This document shows, in pieces, positions 57,123 to 57,420 of a stretch of DNA of 64,000 bases; position 1 is the first letter of the stretch, and every line of letters begins with the position of its first letter. The stretch is from Clostridia bacterium (lineage in GTDB: Bacteria; Bacillota; Clostridia; Oscillospirales; Butyricicoccaceae), in assembly GCA_029099685.1 (NCBI GenBank), contig JAQXOO010000015.1, positions 1 through 64,000 on the forward strand, in the 5' to 3' direction. A program made the position numbers and the translations under genes. Below the pieces are notes generated by a model. That model did not search any database and was not told the origin of the DNA. It worked only from the letters and a program-made list of their open reading frames with translations.

Positions 57123-57161
57123 GAAAAAAATAACGGCTGCAGCGATTGCTCGCTGCAGCCG
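57123..57161 (-). terminator. Intrinsic terminator / riboswitch expression platform
   Basis: Minus strand CGGCTGCAGCGA-gcaa-TCGCTGCAGCCG followed by TTATTTTTTT. Confidence 0.88.
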
Positions 57162-57222
57162 AATTCCTGCCTGATCTCTGTTTTCCGTACCGCCATGCTC
57201 CGGGCGGTCTTCACCGGGCGCT

Positions 57223-57420
57223 CTGATCGTCGGTCTTCTGGCTTGCGTTTGTGGGGCAGCGCCCCTGCGTCCGGCTTCCTACCTTCTCGGTTTCCCAATG
57301 GCCAACTTTCGTTGCGGAACCGGCCTCAACGCTTACAGCTGCGGTACAGCGGGGCATTTCACCCCATTATCTCATCCCGGACCCATGGGCTGAAGCCGTT
57401 AGGGTACAGGACTCGATCAA
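57223..57420 (-). ncRNA. Cobalamin (B12) riboswitch
   Basis: Minus strand carries GATGAGATAATGGGGTGAAATGCCCCGCTGTACCGCAGCTGTAAGCG, GGCCATTGGGAAACCGAGAAGGTAGGAAGCC and B12 box AAGCCAGAAGACCGACGATC; closing stem UUGAUCG/CGAUCAG. Confidence 0.95.

What the first reader, a model, noticed from the sequence alone, without database searches (positions are those of the whole stretch)
57123..57420. Cobalamin riboswitch with a transcription-termination expression platform
The canonical conserved core (CCGCAGCUGUAAGCG, GCCAUUGGG, B12 box AGCCAGAAGACC) lies on the minus strand. It is followed by a strong 12-bp GC stem with a poly-U tract just before the YezD-like ORF. This directly ties the downstream 12-kb cassette to B12 status.
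Basis: partly seen in the sequence, partly recalled or inferred. Interest (0 to 1): 0.8.

Follow-up and report, generated by a model that had tools for sequence, protein, structure and literature searches.

The report
B12 switch controlling vitamin-B12 capture genes
A vitamin-B12-sensing RNA switch, of a well-known kind, sits in front of bacterial surface proteins built like our own stomach and blood B12 carriers, and it is led by a tiny unstudied protein that turns out to sit behind B12 switches in several unrelated bacteria.

Summary
Window 57219-57423 (minus strand) holds a cobalamin (corrinoid) riboswitch: RF00174 scores 39.7 bits against a cut-off of 31.5, the only Rfam match in the window. 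A 12-bp terminator hairpin with a U tract follows, then a 47-aa DUF2292 (YezD-like) ORF. The aptamer is divergent: its L5 loop is GAAA, not the UCCCG of the usual L5-L13 kissing loop.

The cassette behind it is a predicted corrinoid-capture system. AlphaFold models of its toroid+DUF4430 region and its DUF4430 lipoprotein match transcobalamin, intrinsic factor and haptocorrin best among PDB entries. Relatives continue the operon with an ECF importer and CobS. Here the importer part is missing, and the lipoprotein's tail reads into a remnant of neighbouring genes.

Burroughs et al. 2007 already predicted this kind of B12-scavenging operon. What I found no paper for is that a DUF2292 subfamily is repeatedly the first gene after a cobalamin riboswitch (eleven cases in nine genomes), mostly with a terminator in between.

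Ligand-dependent termination remains to be shown. The recurrent DUF2292 link is the interesting part.

The parts
57452..57479 (-). sigma-70-like promoter TTGACT-16-TATATT
   Evidence: consensus scan, 10 of 12 matches; not tested
57219..57423 (-). corrinoid riboswitch aptamer including P1 and P2 (Rfam core match 57234-57368)
   Evidence: RF00174 39.7 bits; same fold in relative G005; paired changes in 17 of 28 consensus pairs over 10 related riboswitches
57291..57294 (-). L5 loop, GAAA instead of the UCCCG consensus
   Evidence: sequence, family comparison
57232..57243 (-). B12 box AGCCAGAAGACC
   Evidence: sequence, Rfam alignment
57124..57161 (-). intrinsic terminator: 12-bp hairpin 57161-57134 plus U tract
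   Evidence: hairpin MFE -24.7 kcal/mol
56968..57110 (-). DUF2292 (YezD-like) protein, 47 aa, first gene
   Evidence: PF10055 45.3 bits
47908..56799 (-). 2963-aa surface protein: signal peptide, 2x DUF4430, PQQ-type propeller, alpha/alpha toroid, InlB-like repeat, 3x SLH
   Evidence: Pfam; toroid alignment; toroid+DUF4430 region matches transcobalamin by fold
46307..47842 (-). 511-aa toroid + SLH surface protein
   Evidence: Pfam; toroid alignment
45221..46303 (-). DUF4430 lipoprotein-like ORF; native part to about 45500, last ~90 aa read into remnant DNA
   Evidence: Pfam; fold match to intrinsic factor; repeats
45349..45510 (.). remnant of neighbouring genes: copy of clpB 3' end (45349-45432) and of the 3' end of gene 57607-57804 (45455-45510), marking the downstream edge of the cassette

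Best explanation
A corrinoid (cobalamin) riboswitch of the transcription-attenuation, OFF-switch type controls an operon of a DUF2292 small protein, two S-layer-anchored surface proteins and a DUF4430 lipoprotein. When cells have enough corrinoid, the aptamer folds around it, the terminator hairpin forms and the operon is silent. When corrinoid is scarce, the 5' strand of the terminator is taken up by upstream sequence and the operon is read. The surface proteins then capture corrinoid between an alpha/alpha toroid and a beta-grasp DUF4430 domain, as transcobalamin and intrinsic factor do, and pass it to an ECF importer encoded elsewhere in this genome (contig C1). Shown here: aptamer, terminator, gene order, fold match and recurrence in relatives. 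Inferred: ligand, direction of the switch, antiterminator, corrinoid binding, import.
For: RF00174 above cut-off. Terminator between aptamer and first ORF, 0/200 shuffles; terminators of unrelated sequence at the same place, 8 of 11 riboswitch-DUF2292 leaders in all. Same order riboswitch-DUF2292-DUF4430 surface protein in G005 and G063, and the riboswitch-DUF2292 pair ahead of DUF4430 or toroid genes in Tissierella, Lutispora, Formimonas, Pelotomaculum and Clostridium thermobutyricum loci. DUF4430-riboswitch co-orientation 22/49 vs 2. Relatives' operons continue with CbiQ/EcfT, fused EcfAA-S and CobS. Fold: the toroid+DUF4430 model (pLDDT 82.5) has transcobalamin as its first nine PDB matches, best E 5.5e-7; for the lipoprotein DUF4430 model (pLDDT 91.5) all 19 matches at E<=0.001 are intrinsic factor, transcobalamin, haptocorrin or a bacterial structural-genomics protein. 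The genome has a CbiQ + ABC-ABC-S gene set next to a toroid/SLH protein on C1, four B12-binding-domain matches, CbiD and CobS. In a published reporter study 37 of 38 functional, repressing corrinoid riboswitches had predicted intrinsic terminators (PMC9600662).
Against: No binding or termination assay. The 39.7-bit score is low and P1/P2 are outside the Rfam match. The proposed antiterminator (terminator 5' strand with aptamer core 57339-57314, -22.4 kcal/mol) barely beats shuffles (5th percentile -22.0), and the equivalent in G005 does not (-17.9 vs median -17.1). The two-domain fold matches have low whole-model TM-scores (0.25-0.33 by query for the carriers) and 14-20 A rmsd because domain placement differs. 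The genome has CbiD, so it may make corrinoid itself. No ECF gene is in this copy of the cassette.
Confidence: 0.85

Rival explanations
1. The riboswitch is real but works as an ON switch (corrinoid binding prevents termination), as in the activating A. halodurans cobT riboswitch.
For: Such switches exist and also use a terminator (PMC10653944). The direction cannot be read from the sequence with confidence.
Against: In the ON case P13 and the terminator share sequence; here the MFE model keeps the upstream hairpins and the terminator as separate stems in G005. Uptake genes are normally repressed by corrinoid.
Confidence: 0.07
2. The aptamer is a decayed relic: it no longer binds corrinoid, and the terminator simply attenuates the operon constitutively.
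For: Low Rfam score with partial model coverage; GAAA L5 lacks the kissing-loop partner; the cassette lacks an importer end and has a damaged lipoprotein tail.
Against: The window sequence shares 42 invariant columns with nine other riboswitches; pairs are kept through double changes; the same leader survives in G005 at 73% identity. GNRA-like L5 also occurs in riboswitches scoring above 100 bits.
Confidence: 0.06
3. The DUF4430/toroid proteins bind something other than a corrinoid (for example a glycan or another cofactor), and the riboswitch link reflects co-regulation only.
For: Archaeal members were suggested to scavenge other metabolites (PMC1796856); the nearest sequence relatives of the toroid in the PDB are terpene cyclases.
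Against: Fold searches put B12 carriers first; the riboswitch, ECF importer and CobS neighbours all point to corrinoid.
Confidence: 0.1

Closest known systems
Cobalamin riboswitch, Rfam RF00174 (corrinoid riboswitches, e.g. Priestia megaterium metE)
   Same: Core sequence, junction helices, B12 box, terminator downstream of the aptamer
   Different: L5 is GAAA rather than UCCCG, so the usual L5-L13 kissing loop cannot form as Watson-Crick pairs; low model score; no clear L13 partner
Transcobalamin / intrinsic factor / haptocorrin
   Same: Alpha/alpha toroid plus beta-grasp domain; best PDB fold matches
   Different: Bacterial, S-layer anchored, domains spaced apart in one chain or split over two proteins; no sequence-level PDB hit; binding untested
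Bacterial transcobalamin-like SLBB operons with CbiO/CbiQ (Burroughs et al. 2007, PMC1796856)
   Same: DUF4430-type domain with toroid or beta-propeller fusion, paralogous second SLBB protein, CbiO/CbiQ neighbours in relatives, predicted B12 scavenging
   Different: That paper does not contain the word riboswitch, nor DUF2292 in the passages read; here the importer genes are absent from this copy
YezD / OscA small proteins (DUF2292)
   Same: PF10055 match; about 50 aa
   Different: OscA of Pseudomonas is tied to sulfur starvation (via PMC2996968); the riboswitch-linked group ends in KKSIKL-like rather than EKIR-like sequence and scores lower on PF10055
BtuG/BtuH surface B12-binding proteins of Bacteroidetes (PMC8941943)
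   Same: Surface-exposed B12 capture, by function
   Different: Gram-negative outer-membrane proteins; not compared here by sequence or fold

Membership tests
Cobalamin riboswitch RF00174 | Covariance-model score above gathering cut-off | tested here: met
   39.7 vs 31.5 bits
Cobalamin riboswitch RF00174 | Paired core kept through compensatory changes in relatives | tested here: met
   17 of 28 consensus pairs show double changes over 10 sequences
Cobalamin riboswitch RF00174 | L5-L13 kissing loop (a mechanistic feature of studied members, not required by the Rfam model) | tested here: inconclusive
   L5 is GAAA and there is no UUUC between the B12 box and the terminator, so the standard pairing cannot form; UCCCG is also largely absent in this taxonomic family, and another L5 contact is not excluded
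Cobalamin riboswitch RF00174 | Corrinoid binding | not testable with these tools
   needs in-line probing
Transcription-terminating expression platform | Intrinsic terminator between aptamer and first ORF | tested here: met
Transcription-terminating expression platform | Mutually exclusive antiterminator | tested here: inconclusive
   candidate pairing not clearly better than shuffles
Transcobalamin-like corrinoid carriers | Toroid plus DUF4430 beta-grasp fold | tested here: met
Transcobalamin-like corrinoid carriers | Corrinoid binding | not testable with these tools
   needs purified protein
Transcobalamin-like SLBB + ECF uptake operon | CbiQ/EcfT and ECF ATPase genes in the operon | tested here: not met
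   present in relatives but not found downstream of the lipoprotein ORF in this window; an ECF set lies on contig C1
DUF2292 / YezD | PF10055 above cut-off | tested here: met
   45.3 vs 22 bits

The most novel reading that the evidence does not exclude
A distinct subfamily of DUF2292 proteins is a dedicated component of riboswitch-controlled, transcobalamin-like corrinoid uptake in Firmicutes, conserved as the first gene after the riboswitch across several lineages; it would be an unrecognised small protein of B12 acquisition. A second, weaker reading: these riboswitches switch without the L5-L13 kissing loop.
Probability: 0.6. Interest if true: 0.62.

Novelty: new member of a known kind. Interest (0 to 1): 0.45.

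Why it matters
How Gram-positive gut bacteria capture B12 is poorly known; the well-studied surface-capture proteins are those of Bacteroidetes. A B12 riboswitch in front of carrier-like surface proteins gives regulatory support to a 2007 prediction that rested on domain architecture and gene neighbours. The recurrent DUF2292 gene gives a small, easily tested protein with a functional lead. The GAAA L5 loop offers a natural test of whether the kissing loop is needed for switching.

Tried and rejected
A sequence-only search of the PDB with the toroid profile gave terpene cyclases, and the DUF4430 profile gave nothing significant; only fold comparison showed the B12-carrier relation. The idea that a GNRA L5 marks a special subclass tied to DUF4430 was dropped: L5 is variable throughout the family and GNRA also occurs in high-scoring riboswitches. 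The antiterminator search gave a candidate that is not clearly better than chance. A strict regular expression for riboswitches in 80 distant loci found only 5 upstream and badly undercounts. A second DUF4430 gene at 10011-10820 has no RF00174 match in 10000-12500. The sub-threshold RF00174 match on contig C33 (22.5 bits) was not pursued. The paper search for YezD returned only a place name and stray words.

Full report
What was checked. The minus strand of 57219-57423 carries a cobalamin riboswitch. RF00174 matches 57234-57368 with 39.7 bits against a gathering score of 31.5, and no other Rfam family reaches its cut-off anywhere in the window. Rfam aligns only model positions 49-166, but the unaligned 5' part folds into P1 and P2 in this sequence and in its closest relative, G005. 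An alignment of ten related riboswitches gives a consensus in which 17 of 28 pairs show changes on both sides with pairing kept. The terminator is a 12-bp hairpin at 57161-57134 followed by TTATTTTTTT; none of 200 shuffles of the leader gives an equal one. A promoter-like pair of hexamers lies about 30 nt upstream of the aptamer.

The aptamer is divergent in one respect that bears on mechanism. Corrinoid riboswitches rely on pairing between L5 and L13, with an L5 consensus UCCCG (PMC10653944). Here L5 is GAAA. Of 89 riboswitch leaders inspected, nearly all from the family, roughly twenty have a GNRA-like L5 and few have UCCCG, including many with high Rfam scores. So the loop is not a mark of a special subclass, but the textbook kissing loop cannot be assumed here. 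A candidate antiterminator pairs the terminator 5' strand with the aptamer core (57339-57314), which would make aptamer and antiterminator exclusive. Its energy (-22.4 kcal/mol) is only just beyond the 5th percentile of shuffles, and the equivalent in G005 is not unusual. This step is therefore a proposal.

What it controls. The first ORF, 57110-56968, is a DUF2292 protein. It is followed by a 2963-aa surface protein with two DUF4430 domains, a PQQ-type propeller, a toroid and SLH domains; a 511-aa toroid/SLH protein; and a DUF4430 lipoprotein-like ORF (toroid alignment). No convincing terminator was seen on that strand in the intergenic stretches scanned. In relatives the operon goes on with CbiQ/EcfT, a fused ECF ATPase-ATPase-S protein, sometimes another DUF4430 protein, and CobS. 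In the window these are absent. The lipoprotein ORF instead runs into 45349-45510, which contains an 87%-identical copy of the clpB 3' end and a 91%-identical copy of the 3' end of the gene on the other side of the cassette. A comparable ECF set with a toroid/SLH protein is on contig C1 of the same genome.

What the proteins look like. The toroid-to-DUF4430 part of the giant protein was modelled at mean pLDDT 82.5. Its first nine PDB matches are all transcobalamin (best E 5.5e-7), with haptocorrin and intrinsic factor further down among matches at E<=0.001. The two-domain superposition is loose (rmsd 14-20 A, query TM about 0.3), because the domains are placed differently; terpene cyclases match the toroid alone. 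The lipoprotein DUF4430 domain was modelled at pLDDT 91.5, and all 19 matches at E<=0.001 are intrinsic factor, transcobalamin, haptocorrin or a bacterial structural-genomics protein. Burroughs et al. 2007 had already placed bacterial transcobalamin-like domains, toroid and propeller fusions and CbiO/CbiQ neighbours together and predicted B12 scavenging (PMC1796856). The kind of system is thus known as a prediction; the riboswitch is independent regulatory support.

How general the link is. In 60 genomes of the taxonomic family, 22 of 49 DUF4430 domains, behind 17 different riboswitches, lie within 15 kb downstream on the same strand of an RF00174 match; only 2 pairs occur in any other orientation. 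Some of the rest lie near contig ends, where a riboswitch could be missed.

The unexpected part is DUF2292. It is rare: 7 matches in 98 genomes drawn across the class. Of the six outside this genome, three have a cobalamin riboswitch immediately upstream (gene order). One of these three is Lutispora, which also appears among the distant loci below. Among 80 distant DUF4430 loci, DUF2292-like ORFs follow riboswitches in Tissierella simiarum, Lutispora thermophila, Formimonas warabiya and three times in a Pelotomaculum MAG. With the window, G005 and G063 this makes the eleven cases, in nine genomes. G052 has DUF2292 then DUF4430, but its contig begins too late to show a riboswitch. Eight of the eleven leaders contain an intrinsic terminator between aptamer and DUF2292, mostly of unrelated sequence. 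The linked members outside this genus share a pattern like EKEKKLIxLIRxxxYGEIKIxIQDxxPIRxEExKKSIKL, while unlinked ones end like EKIR; the window's own copy is intermediate (YGTVTITVHEGKPTMMDVSKKIKL). Several linked members score near or below the PF10055 cut-off, so they are divergent from the curated family. DUF2292 is mentioned in only two papers of the library searched, neither of which mentions cobalamin or riboswitch. A related family, OscA, is linked to sulfur starvation (PMC2996968). What the small protein does is unknown. Its place suggests a role in corrinoid uptake or its control, and its conservation at the amino-acid level suggests it is a working protein and not just a leader peptide.

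Verdict. As a riboswitch it is an ordinary, somewhat divergent member of a known class. The value lies in the regulon: carrier-like surface capture of B12 in Firmicutes, and a recurrent DUF2292 companion. Limits: no ligand test, the switch direction is inferred from the class and gene content, the contexts of relatives come partly from fragmented metagenome assemblies, and counts of lineages are of loci found, not of a systematic census.

Noticed in passing
45349-45510, with copies at 43801-43884 and 57593-57648: The cassette is bounded by partial copies of its neighbours' 3' ends (clpB 87%, small membrane gene 91%), with a 1.5-kb segment holding ORF 44066-45133 on the far side: scars of insertion or exchange between related strains.
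   Followed up: partly
10011-10820 (-): A second DUF4430 lipoprotein-like gene, next to an M18 aminopeptidase and a GNAT gene, without a riboswitch; the same trio is kept in G003 and G006.
   Followed up: partly
about 17000-57600: In G003, G005 and G006 an SLH protein similar to that of 13757-16747 lies close to the counterpart of the small gene 57607-57804, so about 40 kb of this window may not be at that place in those relatives.
   Followed up: no
G000:C13:22566-25119: Two further cobalamin riboswitches within 2.6 kb, with CbiD on the same contig (C13:16533).
   Followed up: no
G000:C21:2511-3165: Another riboswitch directly upstream of a 419-aa DUF4430 + SLH protein.
   Followed up: partly
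L035 (G003:C67): A cobalamin riboswitch followed by a protein with homing-endonuclease-associated HNH repeats, before a second signal-peptide ORF.
   Followed up: no
L214 (G085:C1): A DUF2292 gene without a cobalamin riboswitch lies near a TwoAYGGAY RNA (RF01731, 44.8 vs 43 bits).
   Followed up: no
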